From Dulcicalothrix desertica PCC 7102 (GTDB taxonomy: Bacteria; Cyanobacteriota; Cyanobacteriia; Cyanobacteriales; Nostocaceae): DNA of 64,000 bases. The stretch is from assembly GCF_003991905.1 (NCBI RefSeq), contig NZ_RSCL01000016.1:186001-250000 (forward strand). The letters run 5' to 3'. Below the pieces are notes generated by a model. That model was not told where the DNA came from, made no database searches, and saw only the letters and a program-made list of their open reading frames with translations. Shown here piece after piece: positions 23,821 through 32,551 of the stretch (position 1 is its first letter; each line of letters begins with the position of its first letter). The translations under genes and the position numbers were made by a program.

Positions 23821-24507
23821 TTAACGATTGCGCCAAACTGCATGGCTACGCGCGCTTAAAAAAGTATTGATGGGAATAGCAAACCTTAAAATTTCCAAAC
23901 GCTTGCCTTGCTTTTCAATTTCTCTAGCAATACCGTTAATACCTATTAAATTTCCTTGTTCGTCTAATACAGCACCCCCGCTCATTCCGGGTACGGCTCG
24001 ATTATCGTACACTAAGGTATAACCCTTTTCACCATTTTCCAAGCGACTGCGAATATTACCTTGAGTAAATTGGTAATTACGTTCTTCTGTAACTCCAGGT
24101 ATACTTGAAGCCCATCCAGCTACATAAACAGGCATTCCTTCATATGCGTTATCAGAATTTCCCGCACTGGCGACGTTATAATTTTGTACGCTGCTAAATT
24201 CTAATATTGCTAAATCTAACCCTAATAATTCTCTAATACGCTTTACCGAATAACGGGCGCCGTCATATGTTTTAATTTCATAATTACCATCATCCGCAAC
24301 TACATGCTGATTAGTCAAAACGTAATAAGTATTTCCTTTACGCTCAATAACCACTCCAGAACCGACGCCTGAACCACCAACAACAACCGTAAACTGTTTA
24401 GCGATAGCATTAATTTGTAACGGTGACAACCCAAAAGCCACTTGCGGTTGAATTACAACAACCGCAGCACCGAACAGCAATGCTGGGAGATTATCTATAA
24501 ATTTCAT
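23821..24507 (-). CDS. Secreted trypsin-like serine protease (S1/DegP type)
   Basis: The 228-residue protein (from the ATG at 24507; the frame is open to a TTG at 24540) begins with a signal peptide, MKFIDNLPALLFGAAVVVIQ, likely cut near VAFG. The catalytic triad is visible: His in VLTNQHVV, Asp in LGLDLAILEF and Ser in VPGMSGGAV. No PDZ domain is present. I choose 24507 because the signal peptide starts there, although no good ribosome site is visible. The stop codon of the next upstream protease gene lies just before it, so 24542-25327 and this gene form a tight operon with COP23. Confidence 0.85.
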   Translation of the reverse strand: MKFIDNLPALLFGAAVVVIQPQVAFGLSPLQINAIAKQFTVVVGGSGVGSGVVIERKGNTYYVLTNQHVVADDGNYEIKTYDGARYSVKRIRELLGLDLAILEFSSVQNYNVASAGNSDNAYEGMPVYVAGWASSIPGVTEERNYQFTQGNIRSRLENGEKGYTLVYDNRAVPGMSGGAVLDEQGNLIGINGIAREIEKQGKRLEILRFAIPINTFLSARSHAVWRNR

Positions 24508-24541
24508 ACATAGCGCCGATTTTTGAAATCGGGAAGTCAAT

Positions 24542-25327
24542 TTATGGAAATAACAACTTGAGATAATTTTCTAATGGTATTCCCCAGCTATATTGTTGCA
24601 TTTGTTTTTGCTCTAGCAGTGCTGGTTCTGTTCCGTCTTGGTATATATAAGGATTGCCCCAAAGAGGTTCAGCGTGCATACCGTTAATGGCGATAACCTC
24701 ACCTGCATGATTTAATACAGGCCCACCACTCATACCTTTTTGGATATCGTTAGTGTAAGCAATTTGATACCCACCTTCTAATGCTTTACTAAGAACGAGG
24801 GAAACTCGACCACTTTTGATTACAAATCCTTTATCTCTCGAAGCTTGTGTATCTCCTGGAAACCCTGCTGCATAAACTTTGTTACCTTTCTTCAGCTTTG
24901 ACGTTGAACCAAGCTTCGCTTGAGGGTAACGTTGATCAACGCTTTGAAATTGCAATAACGCTAAATCAGCTTTTTGTAGAGATGTTGAATGTGGAGATAC
25001 TACATTTAACTTCTCTACTGGTGTTGCTGAATATAATCGACCATTGTTAGTTTGAATTTGATAAGGTGGTTTACCTGCCCGAAGTACATGAGCATTTGTT
25101 ACCACAGTATAAACTTGTCCCTGATTTTTAATTAATATCCCTGACCCCAAAAAATCACCTGCCAGGATTTTAACTGTAATTGACGAGGCAATGTGTTGGA
25201 GTTGCGGTTGGGATTTTATAGATGGTTGCTCAAGCGCAACCATAGAATACGGCACTTTGGGCACCGGCAATAATGATAAACCGCTCAAACTGGCAATAAT
25301 GATAATAAAACTTTGGCGCCAATTCAT
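24542..25327 (-). CDS. Secreted trypsin-like serine protease, second copy
   Basis: A 261-residue exported protease with a hydrophobic N-terminus (SFIIIIASLSGLSLLPVP). Triad residues: His in VVTNAHVLRAG, Asp in LQKADLALLQF, Ser in IQKGMSGGPVLN. It is related to, but clearly different from, the neighbour at 23821-24507 and has a longer C-terminal part. Order in the probable operon is COP23, this protease, then the second protease, all on the minus strand with gaps under 40 bases. Such protease/COP23 groups recur in cyanobacteria in my knowledge of these genomes; substrates are unknown. Confidence 0.87.
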   Translation of the reverse strand: MNWRQSFIIIIASLSGLSLLPVPKVPYSMVALEQPSIKSQPQLQHIASSITVKILAGDFLGSGILIKNQGQVYTVVTNAHVLRAGKPPYQIQTNNGRLYSATPVEKLNVVSPHSTSLQKADLALLQFQSVDQRYPQAKLGSTSKLKKGNKVYAAGFPGDTQASRDKGFVIKSGRVSLVLSKALEGGYQIAYTNDIQKGMSGGPVLNHAGEVIAINGMHAEPLWGNPYIYQDGTEPALLEQKQMQQYSWGIPLENYLKLLFP

Positions 25328-27811: not shown

Positions 27812-29512
27812 CTATTTCTTCATATTAGTAGTTATAAACGTTTGAATTTCTGGTGATGTCAAAAGCGGCTTTGCATCATTAAGTATGATGTTTGACCATA
27901 GTCGCTCTTTCTTGAGATAATCTACATTTGCCAGACGAGGTTCTAAACGCAGTGCTTCTTTTGCCAGTTCCAAACTTTGTTGAGGTTTATCTTTATATAA
28001 TGCTACTGCCAATGCGAATAGAGACTCATCACTTTGTCTATTAATAGCAATAGCATCCTGCCAATGCTTGATTGCGGCTTGAGTATTACGCTGGTCGTAC
28101 TCAATGAATGCAAGATTGCTAATTACTATGGAGTTTTTTGGTTCTAATTCGATTGCTTTTTTATAGTTAGCTATTGAATCAGGTATTTTTCCTTGGGAGT
28201 AATACAAAACACCTAAACCGTTGTAGCCAGCAGCATTATTAGGATTAATGTTAATCGCTTGATTGTAATCAGAAATAGCTCCTTGATTGTCACCTAAGTC
28301 GTTACGGACTCCACCTCGACCAACATAAGCAAGCAAATAATTGGAATTAATCCTAATTGCTTCGTCAAAATCAGCAATAGCTCCTTGCTTATCTCCCAAG
28401 TCGCGACGAAGTAAACCTCTATCTACATAAATATCAGCATTATTTGGATTAATATGGATGGCTTTTGTGTAATCTCTAATTGCCCCTTGTTTGTCGCGTA
28501 AATTTGAGCGTGCCTTACCGCGATTAAATAAAGCTATGGCATTATTAGGATTACTCTTGATGTCTTGGGTGTAATAAGCAATAGCTTGATTATAGTCAGC
28601 GTCTGCTCTTTTGTCGTCTCCTAAATCTCTAAAAACATTGCCTCGGTCTAGGTAAACATTGGAATTAATCGGATTAATCTTGAGAGATTGAGTATAATCA
28701 TCAATTGCCCGCTTCTTATCCTCTAGATTTAAGTAGGCATTAACTCGGCGATAGAAAGCATCGGCATTGTTGGGACTATCCTTGATATCTTGGGTATAAT
28801 AAGCAATAGCTTGATTGTTATCAGCGTTAGCTTTTTGTTTATCTCCCAAATTTTTGTAAATATAACCTCGATTTAGATAAGCATTAGAATAAATTGGTTC
28901 TATTTTGATGGCTTGGGTGTAATCATCAATTGCTTGCTTATTATATCCTAAGTCTGAGTACACAATAGCGCGACTATAGTAAGCATCGGCATAATTTTGC
29001 TTAAACTTAATAGCTTGTGTGTAGTCATTTATTGCTTGTTTTTTATCCCCTAGGTCTGAGTATATACCACCGCGAGAATAATAGACATCGGCGTTATTTG
29101 GCTTGAGACTGATAGCTCTATTATAATCAATAATTGCTTGCTTTTGATTTCCTAAACGAGAATAAACATTGCCTCGTTTGTAGTAAGTATCTGCATCCTT
29201 TGGGTAACTATTAATATCTTGGGTGTAATAAACAAGTGCTTTATTATAATCATCATCTGCTCTTTGCCTATCTCCCAATTCTTTATAAGCGCTAGCTCTT
29301 ATAAAGTAAGTCCAGCCGGAATCCGGTTTAAGTTCAAGCGCTTTGGTATAATCGCTAATTGCCCCTTTATAATCGCCTAATCTGTAATAAGCAGTACCTC
29401 GATTAAAATAAGAAACTTCATAATCTGGTTCAATTATAATTGCTTGGTTAAAATCTTGAATTCCCTCAGTAGCTCTACTAATATAAATACCTATGACTGT
29501 AAGCTTTGACAA
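27812..29512 (-). CDS. TPR-repeat protein, probably missing its original 5' part
   Basis: About 14 consecutive 34-residue tetratricopeptide repeats make up almost all of the 566 residues (for example AISDYTKALELKPDSGWTYFIRASAYKELGD). Such proteins form helical scaffolds for partners. There is no ATG anywhere in the frame before the last residues. The only upstream start is a TTG at 29512, which overlaps the start of the opposite-strand FHA gene by 20 bases, and there is no signal peptide or protease domain as in many cyanobacterial relatives. The 5' end has probably been lost by rearrangement next to the FHA gene. Confidence 0.72.
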   Translation of the reverse strand: MSKLTVIGIYISRATEGIQDFNQAIIIEPDYEVSYFNRGTAYYRLGDYKGAISDYTKALELKPDSGWTYFIRASAYKELGDRQRADDDYNKALVYYTQDINSYPKDADTYYKRGNVYSRLGNQKQAIIDYNRAISLKPNNADVYYSRGGIYSDLGDKKQAINDYTQAIKFKQNYADAYYSRAIVYSDLGYNKQAIDDYTQAIKIEPIYSNAYLNRGYIYKNLGDKQKANADNNQAIAYYTQDIKDSPNNADAFYRRVNAYLNLEDKKRAIDDYTQSLKINPINSNVYLDRGNVFRDLGDDKRADADYNQAIAYYTQDIKSNPNNAIALFNRGKARSNLRDKQGAIRDYTKAIHINPNNADIYVDRGLLRRDLGDKQGAIADFDEAIRINSNYLLAYVGRGGVRNDLGDNQGAISDYNQAININPNNAAGYNGLGVLYYSQGKIPDSIANYKKAIELEPKNSIVISNLAFIEYDQRNTQAAIKHWQDAIAINRQSDESLFALAVALYKDKPQQSLELAKEALRLEPRLANVDYLKKERLWSNIILNDAKPLLTSPEIQTFITTNMKK

Positions 29513-30227
29513 ACCTACAGTTTTTGATTCACCAGCTTTTATTGAACTTGGTAATAAAGGTGAAATTTTACGCTTGTATCTTGAAAAAGACCAGCATAAA
29601 CTTGGAAGAGACCCAGAATGGGCAGATTTGAAAGTACCCGTTGATTGGGGTTTGGTATCACGTCGTCAAGCAATATTTGTACGTGAAGGTAATTTATATC
29701 GTATTTTTGATGGAGATGGTACTAAGAGTAGTACCCACGGCATTTTTGTAAATGGAACGCGCGTTTCGGCATCAAGTGGCTATCTTCTCACGAGTGGAGC
29801 GCAGTTAGAAATTGCTAAATCTAGCGACCACATTCTATTGACTTACTCAAACGCAGTAATATCGAAACCTCCTGAAAACATCGTTTTACCAAGCAACAGA
29901 CGTTTGGTGTTAAAAGGAATAAAAGAATTTCCGATTAAACTTGGACGCGCTCCTAATTCTGATGTTTACTCATCAATGCAACTTGACGCACCAACGGTTT
30001 CCCGTCTCCATGCAAAAATCTATACCAATGGAAACGGCGCCTATGGTTCTTTAGTAGATGTCAATACATTAATTCCTGCTAATACCCCAACCGAAATTAT
30101 TAAAACATCTTTTGTATATAGCGCCACTTGGAAAAACCTAGGCTTAAACTGGGGAGTTTTGATTATTCATATATCAGTTTGTATAGGTGTCTCATTGTGG
30201 CTGCAAAAACGTAAAGATATTGTTTAG
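29493..30227 (+). CDS. FHA-domain protein, internal-deletion derivative of an FHA-ABC transporter
   Basis: The 244 residues contain two FHA phosphothreonine-binding domains: residues 28-115 (KLGRDPEWADL, VSRRQAIF, THGIFVNG) and 137-184 (KLGRAPNSDVYSSM, VSRLHAKI). The second stops early, and from residue about 185 the sequence is LVDVNTLIPANTPTEIIKTS, then NLGLNWGVLIIHISVCIGVSLWLQKRKDIV, with one membrane helix. That tail resembles the extreme C-terminus of cyanobacterial FHA-FHA-ATPase-permease proteins. The ATPase and permease parts, several hundred residues, are absent while the frame is kept. A GGCGCC hexamer (30036-30041) sits at the apparent joint. Confidence 0.82.
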   Translation: MTVSFDKPTVFDSPAFIELGNKGEILRLYLEKDQHKLGRDPEWADLKVPVDWGLVSRRQAIFVREGNLYRIFDGDGTKSSTHGIFVNGTRVSASSGYLLTSGAQLEIAKSSDHILLTYSNAVISKPPENIVLPSNRRLVLKGIKEFPIKLGRAPNSDVYSSMQLDAPTVSRLHAKIYTNGNGAYGSLVDVNTLIPANTPTEIIKTSFVYSATWKNLGLNWGVLIIHISVCIGVSLWLQKRKDIV

Positions 30228-30772
30228 GCTTTGATATATGTGGCAGAAACATTGGATAGAAAATTAGTAATATCAGCTATGATTGGATGCTGCCGTACTT
30301 GGCTTAACTCCTCAGCGTTCATATTCTCAAATATTGTTTGGATGTATTGTGACTTATCACCTAAGAATCTAGACAAAAATCGCTTTGGATGACAGCAAGC
30401 AAACTCCCACTCCAAATCAGTAAAATGTTGTCCAATCAGTTTTTCAATCAAATCACGATTTTGTAATAAAACAACTTCAATTTCCGGAACAGCCATAATA
30501 ATTTTATATGGAACACCTGGAGAAGATTGACGCATTAAAAAATTTATATCATTAAATTTCTCTACGACTATATCTTTATCATCTGCACGCGTGTTTACTA
30601 TTAAAACTACAGGTATTCTATCAGACCCAAGAATTGTCGTCGCCATTGAATGAGCAGCATACTGACCCGAACCTGCGAAATGTTTTGTATTTTCAAGCAG
30701 TTTATTAGATAATATTTTTTTGATAATATCTAAATCGGAATTAAATTCTGTTATAATATAAGCCTGAATCAT
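30224..30772 (-). CDS. TOPRIM-like protein, second gene of a nuclease operon
   Basis: The 182-residue protein has no family name I can give with certainty. The pattern AYIITEFNSDLDIIKKIL near the start, GSGQYAAHSMATTIL, then VVLIVNTRADDKDIVVEKF and a late AVPEIEVVLLQNRDLIEKL resembles TOPRIM-type proteins, in which a Glu and a DxD motif bind metal. Here the expected DAD/DTD is NTRADD, so metal binding may be altered. The ATG overlaps the stop of the upstream Mrr-like nuclease gene (4-base ATGA), which implies translational coupling and a shared function. The FHA gene converges on its 3' end with a 4-base overlap. Confidence 0.7.
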   Translation of the reverse strand: MIQAYIITEFNSDLDIIKKILSNKLLENTKHFAGSGQYAAHSMATTILGSDRIPVVLIVNTRADDKDIVVEKFNDINFLMRQSSPGVPYKIIMAVPEIEVVLLQNRDLIEKLIGQHFTDLEWEFACCHPKRFLSRFLGDKSQYIQTIFENMNAEELSQVRQHPIIADITNFLSNVSATYIKA

Positions 30773-31317
30773 GGTAATCTCCTATTAATATAGTAATTTG
30801 GAACACCTTGTTCAACACAGTATCGATATTTTTTGAGAAGCGCTAGTCGCATAAATTGATTTTGCAAACAATAATATATTTCTCCCTGTTCCCACAGAAG
30901 AATAGTTTGAGGAGCTATATATTTGGCTAAAGTAGCAGCAGCATCTGTGAAACCATTACGACTAAAGACGCAACCAATCGCTGCTACGGGTCTGCGTAGC
31001 AATTGGTTTCTAAGTTTGGCAATTGGTTCAACATTCACTTTTGCACTTGTGTCTTTACATTCTACAAGACAGTTCAGACCATCAGAATAAATAGCTCCGT
31101 CAATTTGCTCAAGTTCCTCCTCCTCATCTATCCGCACACTATATGGATAGAGGACTTCGGCGCCTTCAAGTTGAAATGCTCTTATAATTAAATATTCTAG
31201 AGCTTTTCCTGCATCCCAATCAGGAGTATCTCCTGCCTGTATCTGAGACCAAAGTCTAATTAAATCGTCCAAATTATAAGTTTTTATCCTGGCTTCGTAT
31301 TCTGCACCAGTAGGCAT
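30769..31317 (-). CDS. Mrr-like PD-(D/E)XK endonuclease
   Basis: A 182-residue protein with the restriction-endonuclease fold pattern: Glu in ALEYLIIRAFQLEGAEVLYP (about 41), Asp in EQIDGAIYSDGLNCLVECKD (about 73), with Glu-x-Lys at 86-88. It continues with IGCVFSRNGFTDAAATLAKY, which corresponds to the Mrr-type helix after the core, and ILLWEQGEI. No specificity or methyltransferase gene is adjacent, so this is not a standard restriction system. It is coupled to the TOPRIM-like gene by a 4-base overlap. The ATG at 31317 fits, though no strong ribosome site is visible. Confidence 0.78.
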   Translation of the reverse strand: MPTGAEYEARIKTYNLDDLIRLWSQIQAGDTPDWDAGKALEYLIIRAFQLEGAEVLYPYSVRIDEEEELEQIDGAIYSDGLNCLVECKDTSAKVNVEPIAKLRNQLLRRPVAAIGCVFSRNGFTDAAATLAKYIAPQTILLWEQGEIYYCLQNQFMRLALLKKYRYCVEQGVPNYYINRRLP

Positions 31318-31488
31318 GTAATTATTATATCCTGTAACGAACTATATTAATACAAACTAAATATAACTCGTTGAGCTTATCATTTGTACTAGCGTCACTG
31401 AATATTAATAAAAACTTTGATTGAACTTTAAATTCTAAATATCTGTTGGTTTATTCTTGACCAGTTACTGAGGTTATAAACAAGAATG

Positions 31489-31836
31489 TTATTGCTGCAA
31501 GGCTTTTAACTCACCTAAATTTGTAATAATTCTAAATAGTCTGTCACTAAAATATACAACCTGATAATCAGGCGCCAGTTCTGTTTGCAGTTGCTTCCAT
31601 AAACTAATTCCTTCTTTTTCAAAAGCAACTTTAGCTTCTAAACTAGGAAAACCTGGAGAGTCAGTAGGGTCTTCCCAATTTAAGGTAGCATCATAAGCCT
31701 TTGCCCATTTATGTAAACGTTCAATTGTATTATTACTCAAAGGTAAACTTTCAGGCTCTATATCTCCCACTTCATCATCATCCCACCATAATGGATCACA
31801 TCCATAATCTGTCATTAGCTTAATTTTTCTAGGCAT
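31489..31836 (-). CDS. Conserved hypothetical protein, copy A of a tandem pair
   Basis: A 115-residue acidic protein (MPRKIKLMTDYGCDPLWW, DVGDIEPESLPLSNNTIERL) with a C-terminal part FEKEGISLWKQLQTELAPDY followed by VVYFSDRLFRII. I do not recognise a named family, although such proteins are known as uncharacterised in cyanobacteria and proteobacteria, perhaps as immunity-type proteins. The next 370 bases hold a second, frameshifted copy, so this is the intact member of a tandem duplication. Confidence 0.75.
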   Translation of the reverse strand: MPRKIKLMTDYGCDPLWWDDDEVGDIEPESLPLSNNTIERLHKWAKAYDATLNWEDPTDSPGFPSLEAKVAFEKEGISLWKQLQTELAPDYQVVYFSDRLFRIITNLGELKALQQ

Positions 31837-31935
31837 ATAAATCCAATCAAAAAAATTCTAGCATTTACCCTGTTATTGAGTGCCTACGTCCTACAGTTCC
31901 CCTTTGCTGCTAATAAATCAAGTTCAATGATTGGT

Positions 31936-32308
31936 TCAAACTATATAACTGAACGGAGCTATTATCGTAGAGCTTCGCGCTTCAGCTAAATTGGCTACAA
32001 CTTTATGTAATCTGTTACTAAAATATACAACTTCATAATCTGGCGCCAGTTCTTTTTGTAGCTGCTTCCATAAACTAATTCCTTCTTCTTCAAAAGCTGA
32101 AGAAGCTTCTAAACTAGGAAAATAGGATGCGGCTGGGTCATCTTGATTTAATGCGCGCATCGTAAATATCTGCCCATTTTTCCAAACGTTCGACAGTAGC
32201 ATTACTTAAGGGCAGGCTGCTTGGGTCAATGTCACCAGCCTGAGTAGAATTTGTCCACCAGAGTGGATAGCATCCATAATCAGCCATTAGCTTAATTTTT
32301 TTTGCCAT
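31936..32308 (-). pseudogene. Frameshifted paralogue of the 31489-31836 gene
   Basis: From an ATG at 32308 the frame reads MAKKIKLMADYGCYPLWW, then DIDPSSLPLSNATVERLEKW and ADIYDA, closely matching copy A. The match then switches to another frame (ALNQDDPAA, FPSLEA, EEEGISLWKQLQKELAPDYE, VVYFSNRLHKVVANL). The switch needs one extra base in the run GCGCGC at about 32153-32159. Without it the gene would be about 120 codons. Unless a sequencing error is present, the copy is broken. Confidence 0.8.
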
Positions 32309-32377
32309 AGCTACTTTACCGTATTACCTAAAGTTCTATTAAATCTGTATAGGTTGGCAACGCTTGACCGAAACCCA

Positions 32378-32500
32378 AGATATTGCTTGCTGATGTTGGG
32401 TTGCCGCGTCGCGTAACCCAACCTACAAATCTCTTTCCTAATATTGTCTCTGTAGAGACGCGATTAATCGCGTCTCTACTGTGTCTCTGTGGTAAAAAAT
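32378..32500. repeat. Cluster of dispersed repeats downstream of chlB
   Basis: It contains GTTGGGTTGCCGCGTCGCGTAACCCAACCTAC (32395-32426; related to 61174-61205), the palindrome at 32452-32479, and CTCTGTGTCTCTGTGGTAAAAA-type sequence (32478-32498) shared with 2275-2295. The 69-codon frame across it (32328-32537) is not coding. Confidence 0.7.
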
Positions 32501-32551
32501 ATCGGTTGGTTTGCGTCTCGCCTTTTGGACTGCACATCTGAGACAGATGTG

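What the first reader, a model, noticed from the sequence alone, without database searches (positions are those of the whole stretch)
30224..31317. Coupled Mrr-like nuclease and TOPRIM-like protein: candidate two-gene defence or DNA-processing module
Seen: two minus-strand genes of 182 codons each, overlapping by ATGA. The first has E...D...ExK spacing of a PD-(D/E)XK nuclease with an Mrr-type NGFTDAAATLAKY helix. The second has a TEFNSD start, a VVLIVNTRADD strand and a VPEIE motif that look like a TOPRIM fold with the usual DxD altered. There is no methyltransferase or specificity gene, and the setting is accessory, amid remnants and repeats. Known: PD-(D/E)XK and TOPRIM proteins are common parts of anti-phage and DNA-repair modules. 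Inferred: the pair acts together, perhaps as an abortive or foreign-DNA nuclease with the TOPRIM partner as a sensor.
Basis: partly seen in the sequence, partly recalled or inferred. Interest (0 to 1): 0.72.

Follow-up and report, generated by a model that had tools for sequence, protein, structure and literature searches.

The report
Paired DNA cutter and TOPRIM partner
Two overlapping genes in a cyanobacterium encode a DNA-cutting enzyme of the Mrr type and a small TOPRIM-fold partner; in the relatives examined the cutter's gene was never found intact without a partner gene, which suggests that the partner keeps a dangerous enzyme in check.

Summary
At 30224-31317 (minus strand) two 182-codon genes overlap by ATGA. 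The first is an Mrr-type PD-(D/E)XK nuclease (Pfam Mrr_cat above cut-off; E41, D73, E86xK88 invariant in 34 of 34 homologues scored intact) without Mrr's usual N-terminal domain. The second folds, by AlphaFold2, like the catalytic end (TOPRIM plus helical domain) of OLD/GajA nucleases, but stands alone without an ATPase. Most relatives carry the TOPRIM metal ligands; the window's copy has lost both aspartates of DxD.

The pair is a real module: in 217 genomes of the window's family it is co-directional and usually ATGA-overlapping, and it occurs in other cyanobacterial orders, on Leptolyngbya plasmids and on a Rhizobium plasmid. Decay is one-sided: of 60 assessable loci of the family, 33 have both genes intact, 21 an intact TOPRIM gene with a broken or missing nuclease, 6 both broken, none the reverse. 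A small second sample agrees; the Rhizobium pair, with a shortened TOPRIM protein, is the one partial exception. I read it as a toxin-antitoxin-like or guarded-nuclease module: Mrr is the destructive effector and the TOPRIM protein restrains or licenses it. No experiment tests this. My literature searches listed no description of such a pair.

The parts
30769..31317 (-). mrr-like gene, 182 codons: short PD-(D/E)XK nuclease; E41 at 31195-31197, D73 at 31099-31101, E86 at 31060-31062, K88 at 31054-31056
   Evidence: ORF; Pfam Mrr_cat above cut-off; invariant residues; dN/dS 0.032/0.193 against Calothrix sp. NIES-4105
30224..30772 (-). topr gene, 182 codons: stand-alone OLD/GajA-type TOPRIM plus helical domain; E9 at 30746-30748, D13 at 30734-30736, E99 at 30476-30478 kept; DxD replaced by N60 (30593-30595) and R62 (30587-30589)
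   Evidence: ORF; homologue alignment; predicted fold; structural matches; dN/dS 0.066/0.258
30769..30772 (-). ATGA overlap of the nuclease stop with the TOPRIM start (translational coupling inferred)
   Evidence: the same 4-base overlap in 26 of 32 other intact loci of the family (29-base gap in 5, 1-base overlap in 1)

Best explanation
A two-gene Mrr-TOPRIM module that works like a toxin-antitoxin pair or a guarded nuclease. The Mrr-type protein is a DNase effector; lacking the usual N-terminal DNA-binding domain, it would cut host DNA if loose (inferred). The co-translated stand-alone OLD-type TOPRIM protein binds it, or binds DNA with it, and holds it inactive or directs it until a trigger such as foreign DNA or loss of the partner (inferred). 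The partner's own metal-dependent catalysis seems not essential: the window's copy has lost DxD yet both genes still show purifying selection. Shown: gene identities, coupling, conservation, presence on plasmids, and that in the family's 217 genomes no intact nuclease gene was found without an intact partner. Inferred: toxicity, binding, trigger and benefit.
For: One-sided decay in the window's family: of 60 assessable loci (59 fetched plus the window; a 60th fetched locus, L140, is cut by a contig end and dropped) 33 both intact, 21 TOPRIM intact with nuclease broken (16) or absent (5), 6 both broken, 0 the reverse; the two genes are equally long. The broken/intact label needs 17 changes on the TOPRIM tree, at least 11 forced by well supported branches (the method cannot tell loss from gain); 0 of 11 has chance 5e-4 under equal loss. 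In 15 of the 21 part or all of the nuclease gene is not detectable, in 6 it is split by a stop or frameshift; no N runs, at least 2.2 kb of sequence on the nuclease side. Second order, 42 genomes, same scoring: 6 of 6 intact nucleases have a TOPRIM gene (2 of the short kind); 3 broken nucleases beside a TOPRIM gene, all in one genome; 0 the reverse. Nuclease active site 34 of 34, TOPRIM second D of DxD 23 of 34 in intact pairs. Overlap and co-divergence. PIN, ParE and HicA toxin genes among near neighbours.
Against: No toxicity, binding or phenotype data. The Rhizobium pair is a partial exception: its nuclease frame is open over profile positions 3-177 while the TOPRIM protein ends early (positions 3-119 of 183, helical part missing). 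One-sided loss would also follow if the TOPRIM protein has a useful job of its own and the nuclease is merely dispensable. DxD is kept about as often in TOPRIM genes without a working nuclease (second D 15 of 21) as with one (23 of 34), and these evolve at median dN/dS 0.31 against 0.26. Six of 21 lesions are single stops or frameshifts that could be sequencing errors. No TOPRIM-fold antitoxin is known to me (recalled). The neighbour comparison is qualitative.
Confidence: 0.47

Rival explanations
1. A two-nuclease anti-foreign-DNA system: Mrr and an active OLD-type TOPRIM nuclease form a complex that nicks and cuts incoming DNA, like Gabija without its ATPase and helicase.
For: Fold of the OLD/GajA catalytic region; E9, D13, DxD and E99, which I match by position to the OLD metal ligands E400, E404, D455/D457 and E508 (passages of PMC6755086), are present in most homologues; presence on plasmids; PADLOC families more varied near than far.
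Against: DxD altered in the window and at one or both positions in several other intact pairs; loss should then hit either gene about equally, which it does not in this family; no PADLOC match of the window's proteins.
Confidence: 0.26
2. The TOPRIM protein has its own useful role and the nuclease is an optional add-on that is often lost without consequence.
For: 21 of 54 intact TOPRIM genes lack an intact nuclease and stay constrained, DxD kept in most of them.
Against: 49 of 54 intact TOPRIM genes have an intact nuclease or a remnant of it beside or near them; ATGA coupling in 26 of 32; both genes are absent from about three quarters of the family's genomes, so neither is housekeeping.
Confidence: 0.19
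3. In the window the module is already inactive: the TOPRIM active site is gone and close relatives have deleted the locus.
For: N60 and R62 replace DxD; Calothrix sp. PCC 7716 lacks 30554-32481 and another same-genus genome keeps only a TOPRIM tail.
Against: Both ORFs open; dN/dS 0.17 (nuclease) and 0.26 (TOPRIM) against NIES-4105, whose copy also lacks the second aspartate; nuclease active site complete.
Confidence: 0.08

Closest known systems
Mrr type IV restriction endonuclease (Pfam Mrr_cat)
   Same: Mrr_cat domain with E, D, ExK active site
   Different: 182 aa; no match to an N-terminal DNA-binding domain; TOPRIM gene directly downstream
OLD family nucleases and Gabija GajA
   Different: No ATPase domain, no GajB-like helicase seen next door; Mrr partner instead; DxD lost in the window
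DUF3226 / PH0156 (PDB 2p62; that 2p62 is a DUF3226 protein is recalled)
   Different: Matches under the Pfam cut-off where shown; longer protein; no Mrr partner known to me
PARIS (AriA + AriB)
   Same: Small operon with a TOPRIM protein of defence type
   Different: PARIS pairs its TOPRIM protein with an ATPase (recalled); here the partner is a nuclease; no PADLOC match
Type II toxin-antitoxin modules and restriction-modification pairs
   Same: Two overlapping genes; destructive member found only with the protective one; protective member often survives alone (general pattern recalled)
   Different: No methyltransferase seen; TOPRIM fold instead of known antitoxin folds; nuclease gene first

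Membership tests
Mrr restriction endonucleases | Mrr_cat domain above Pfam cut-off | tested here: met
   35.1 bits against 21; also the Rhizobium, L020 and L146 homologues
Mrr restriction endonucleases | PD-(D/E)XK residues E, D, ExK | tested here: met
   34 of 34 homologues scored intact
Mrr restriction endonucleases | N-terminal winged-helix domain of E. coli Mrr (feature recalled) | tested here: not met
   only 36 residues precede the Mrr_cat match; no other family above cut-off
Mrr restriction endonucleases | cuts modified DNA (recalled) | not testable with these tools
   needs biochemistry
OLD/Gabija nucleases | TOPRIM plus helical domain fold | tested here: met
OLD/Gabija nucleases | metal ligands E, D/E, DxD, E | tested here: not met
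   window keeps E9, D13, E99, loses both D of DxD; most homologues keep them
OLD/Gabija nucleases | N-terminal ATPase domain | tested here: not met
   182 aa beginning at the first TOPRIM strand
OLD/Gabija nucleases | adjacent helicase gene (GajB) | tested here: not met
   none seen on reading neighbouring ORF translations, (not family-scanned)
Type II toxin-antitoxin | small co-directional coupled gene pair | tested here: met
Type II toxin-antitoxin | toxin gene not found intact without antitoxin gene | tested here: met
   33 of 33 assessable intact nucleases in the family; 6 of 6 in a second order; Rhizobium has a shortened partner
Type II toxin-antitoxin | toxicity alone, neutralisation by partner | not testable with these tools
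   needs an expression test
PARIS | AriA ATPase plus AriB | tested here: not met
   no PADLOC match of the window's two proteins at E up to 1
Restriction-modification | cognate methyltransferase gene nearby | tested here: not met
   none seen on reading ORF translations of 24-38 kb, (not family-scanned)

The most novel reading that the evidence does not exclude
An undescribed toxin-antitoxin-like or guarded defence system in which an Mrr-type DNase is kept in check by a stand-alone OLD/Gabija-type TOPRIM protein whose own catalysis is dispensable: a nuclease fold turned into an antidote or licensing subunit, carried by chromosomes and plasmids of cyanobacteria and reaching Rhizobium.
Probability: 0.33. 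Interest if true: 0.75.

Novelty: new variant of a known kind. Interest (0 to 1): 0.55.

Why it matters
TOPRIM domains of the OLD/Gabija kind are known as nuclease domains joined to an ATPase. Here the domain stands alone and, in the family's genomes searched, its gene is intact beside every assessable intact nuclease gene, while its catalytic DxD is lost in the window and varies elsewhere. If it restrains the nuclease, TOPRIM proteins can act as antidotes, and other small uncharacterised TOPRIM genes deserve re-reading as keepers of a neighbour. Two small genes make it directly testable.

Tried and rejected
Sensor role of the TOPRIM protein: no evidence either way. Phage origin: no relative of the nuclease in phage records or viral contigs, none of a TOPRIM homologue in phage records; the viral-contig scan with the TOPRIM alignment could not run. 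Structure of the nuclease: pLDDT 45 with three rows, not used further. PDB sequence searches gave nothing meaningful for either protein. PHROGs gave only weak unnamed matches. Defence-island test: among 150 near and 150 farther neighbour representatives PADLOC matched 116 against 24 families and Pfam listed PIN 5, PIN_3 2, ParE 3, HicA 2 near against PIN 3 far; only the first 25 families are printed in three of the four scans and several models can hit one protein, so I use it as context only. Shared mobile element: apart from the pair, no neighbour family recurs in more than 20 of the 65 stretches compared; many loci share a few chromosomal sites (20 beside a transketolase-like gene, name recalled), so part of the spread is vertical. 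Dispersed repeat at 32328-32537: 76 matches in the genome, not specific to the module. The small duplicated genes at 31489-32202 are not counted as part of the pair: they do not appear among the recurrent neighbour families.

Rows dropped or weak: L140 (contig end). Three TOPRIM fragment places (G494, G531, G532:C1124) were not fetched. In the second order three further places with partial nucleases (G560, G581:C54, G569:C156) run into contig ends and were dropped; G564 has two shortened TOPRIM genes, one beside a shortened nuclease and one alone; G569:C34 has a nuclease fragment without TOPRIM gene; G577 and G580 keep TOPRIM tails. G578 of that order has the Leptolyngbya plasmid copies at the same coordinates, so they are counted once. 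For L105 only the first 34 codons of the nuclease are undetected. L139 stands near a contig start, but its nuclease frame has stops. Alignment A3 for the fold held 4 rows, one (L026) a truncated ORF with an unrelated start.

Full report
What is there. The first product (P0002) matches Pfam Mrr_cat over residues 37-147 at E 1.6e-8, above the curated cut-off; the TOPRIM-like product (P0001) matches nothing in Pfam, NCBIfam or PADLOC by itself at E up to 1. I call the window's family (code f1) Nostocaceae by recall only. The genome holds the pair once and three other Mrr_cat proteins elsewhere.

The family of pairs. In a sample of 386 genomes of the phylum, 21 carry the TOPRIM gene. 22 match the nuclease: 18 with close matches or fragments, all among the 21 TOPRIM genomes, and 4 with only weak matches (E 1.7e-6 to 2.5e-5) in longer frames of 309-326 aa; one of those 4 also carries the TOPRIM gene. 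In the 217 genomes held of the family, 57 have the TOPRIM gene and 50 the nuclease; the two nuclease genomes outside the 57 have short fragments only. Plasmid records add three copies in Leptolyngbya sp. NIES-3755 and one in Rhizobium beringeri on a conjugative plasmid, with both genes or their pieces side by side. Neither protein has a relative in the phage records, nor the nuclease in viral contigs.

The nuclease. E41, D73, E86 and K88 are the same in 34 of 34 homologues scored intact. Its structure prediction failed for lack of rows (pLDDT 45.2), so its fold rests on Pfam and the motif.

Coupling and selection. The 4-base ATGA overlap is found in 26 of 32 other intact loci, a 29-base gap in 5 and a 1-base overlap in 1. 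Distances of the two proteins correlate (Mantel r 0.907, 0 of 2000 permutations as high, n 33). Window against NIES-4105: nuclease dN 0.032, dS 0.193; TOPRIM dN 0.066, dS 0.258; medians over pairs with dS 0.05-1.2 are 0.23 and 0.26, and 0.31 for TOPRIM genes whose nuclease is broken or absent.

One-sided decay. I fetched 60 loci and scored both genes by profile on open frames. Dropping L140, whose contig ends inside the TOPRIM gene, and adding the window: 33 both intact; 21 TOPRIM intact with nuclease broken (16) or absent (5); 6 both broken; 0 nuclease intact with TOPRIM broken or absent. No N runs lie near the 27 non-intact loci, and the 21 have at least 2.2 kb of sequence on the nuclease side. 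In 15 of the 21 part or all of the nuclease gene is undetectable; in six it is split by a stop or frameshift. On the TOPRIM tree the label changes at least 17 times, 11 forced by well supported branches, no more clustered than shuffled labels, so the lesions are largely independent, though the count cannot tell loss from gain. Starting from the nuclease gives the same: 34 places without an internal break, of which 33 can be checked and have the partner.

Other lineages. In a second order (42 genomes) scored the same way, 6 of 6 intact nucleases have a TOPRIM gene directly downstream, 2 of them of a shorter kind; 3 broken nucleases sit beside a TOPRIM gene, all in one genome; none is the reverse; further partial places are listed under Tried and rejected. 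A third small order (6 genomes) has one intact pair and one broken nuclease with an intact partner. Three other cyanobacterial loci (L018, L019, L027) are intact pairs. Against the pattern: in Rhizobium the nuclease frame is open over positions 3-177 (its early part before the annotated start, with GTG or TTG starts only), while the TOPRIM frame matches only positions 3-119.

The window's locus. It sits between a conserved gene (chlB-like, recalled) and an FHA-domain gene (recalled). In PCC 7716 the same site lacks window bases 30554-32481, and a further same-genus genome keeps only the TOPRIM tail. So the module was present at this site in relatives of the genus and has been lost at least twice.

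Reading. Loss of the nuclease first and of the partner later, not the reverse, is what an effector with a keeper would leave behind, as in toxin-antitoxin or restriction-modification pairs (recalled pattern). A nuclease with an invariant active site beside a TOPRIM protein with a looser one suggests which member is the catalyst. Neighbouring toxin genes fit but do not prove it. That TOPRIM is a second active nuclease remains open for homologues with full DxD.

Novelty. Searches for Mrr or TOPRIM with defence, operon, antitoxin, two-gene or stand-alone terms listed no paper whose title or abstract start describes such a pair; in the passages of PMC3710099 I saw only a domain, HEPN/Toprim-NTD1, that is fused to TOPRIM and to an Mrr-like domain. 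The held library lacks most subscription papers.

Noticed in passing
window 31489-31836 and 31936-32202 (-): Two tandem copies of a small gene family (KLM.DYG..PLWW) without Pfam match, next to the pair; Calothrix sp. NIES-4105 has two full copies upstream (L025 3525-4284), further similar stretches, and a PBECR1-like nuclease gene before them (L025 3106-3507, E 0.0067, below cut-off): possible immunity genes.
   Followed up: partly
window 32328-32537: Dispersed repeat with a core of about 28 bases matched on both strands; 76 matches in the genome; the right edge of the PCC 7716 deletion (32481/32482) falls inside it.
   Followed up: partly
L145-L148, L144; loci of G578 and G581: A shorter TOPRIM subtype (about 145-173 aa) lacking the profile's middle part after the TOPRIM fold, paired with the same nuclease.
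   Followed up: no
L057 8434-8880: Rhizobium beringeri TOPRIM protein without the C-terminal helical part, beside a nuclease frame that is open almost throughout: worth asking whether the TOPRIM core alone suffices.
   Followed up: partly
L130 8881-9546: Deletion fusing the first 45 codons of the nuclease in frame to the TOPRIM gene.
   Followed up: no
window 27812-29512 (-): TPR-repeat protein with many tandem repeats (by reading); related repeat DNA lies near the pair in NIES-4105 too.
   Followed up: no
window 23821-25327 (-): Two adjacent trypsin-like serine protease genes (by reading the translations).
   Followed up: no
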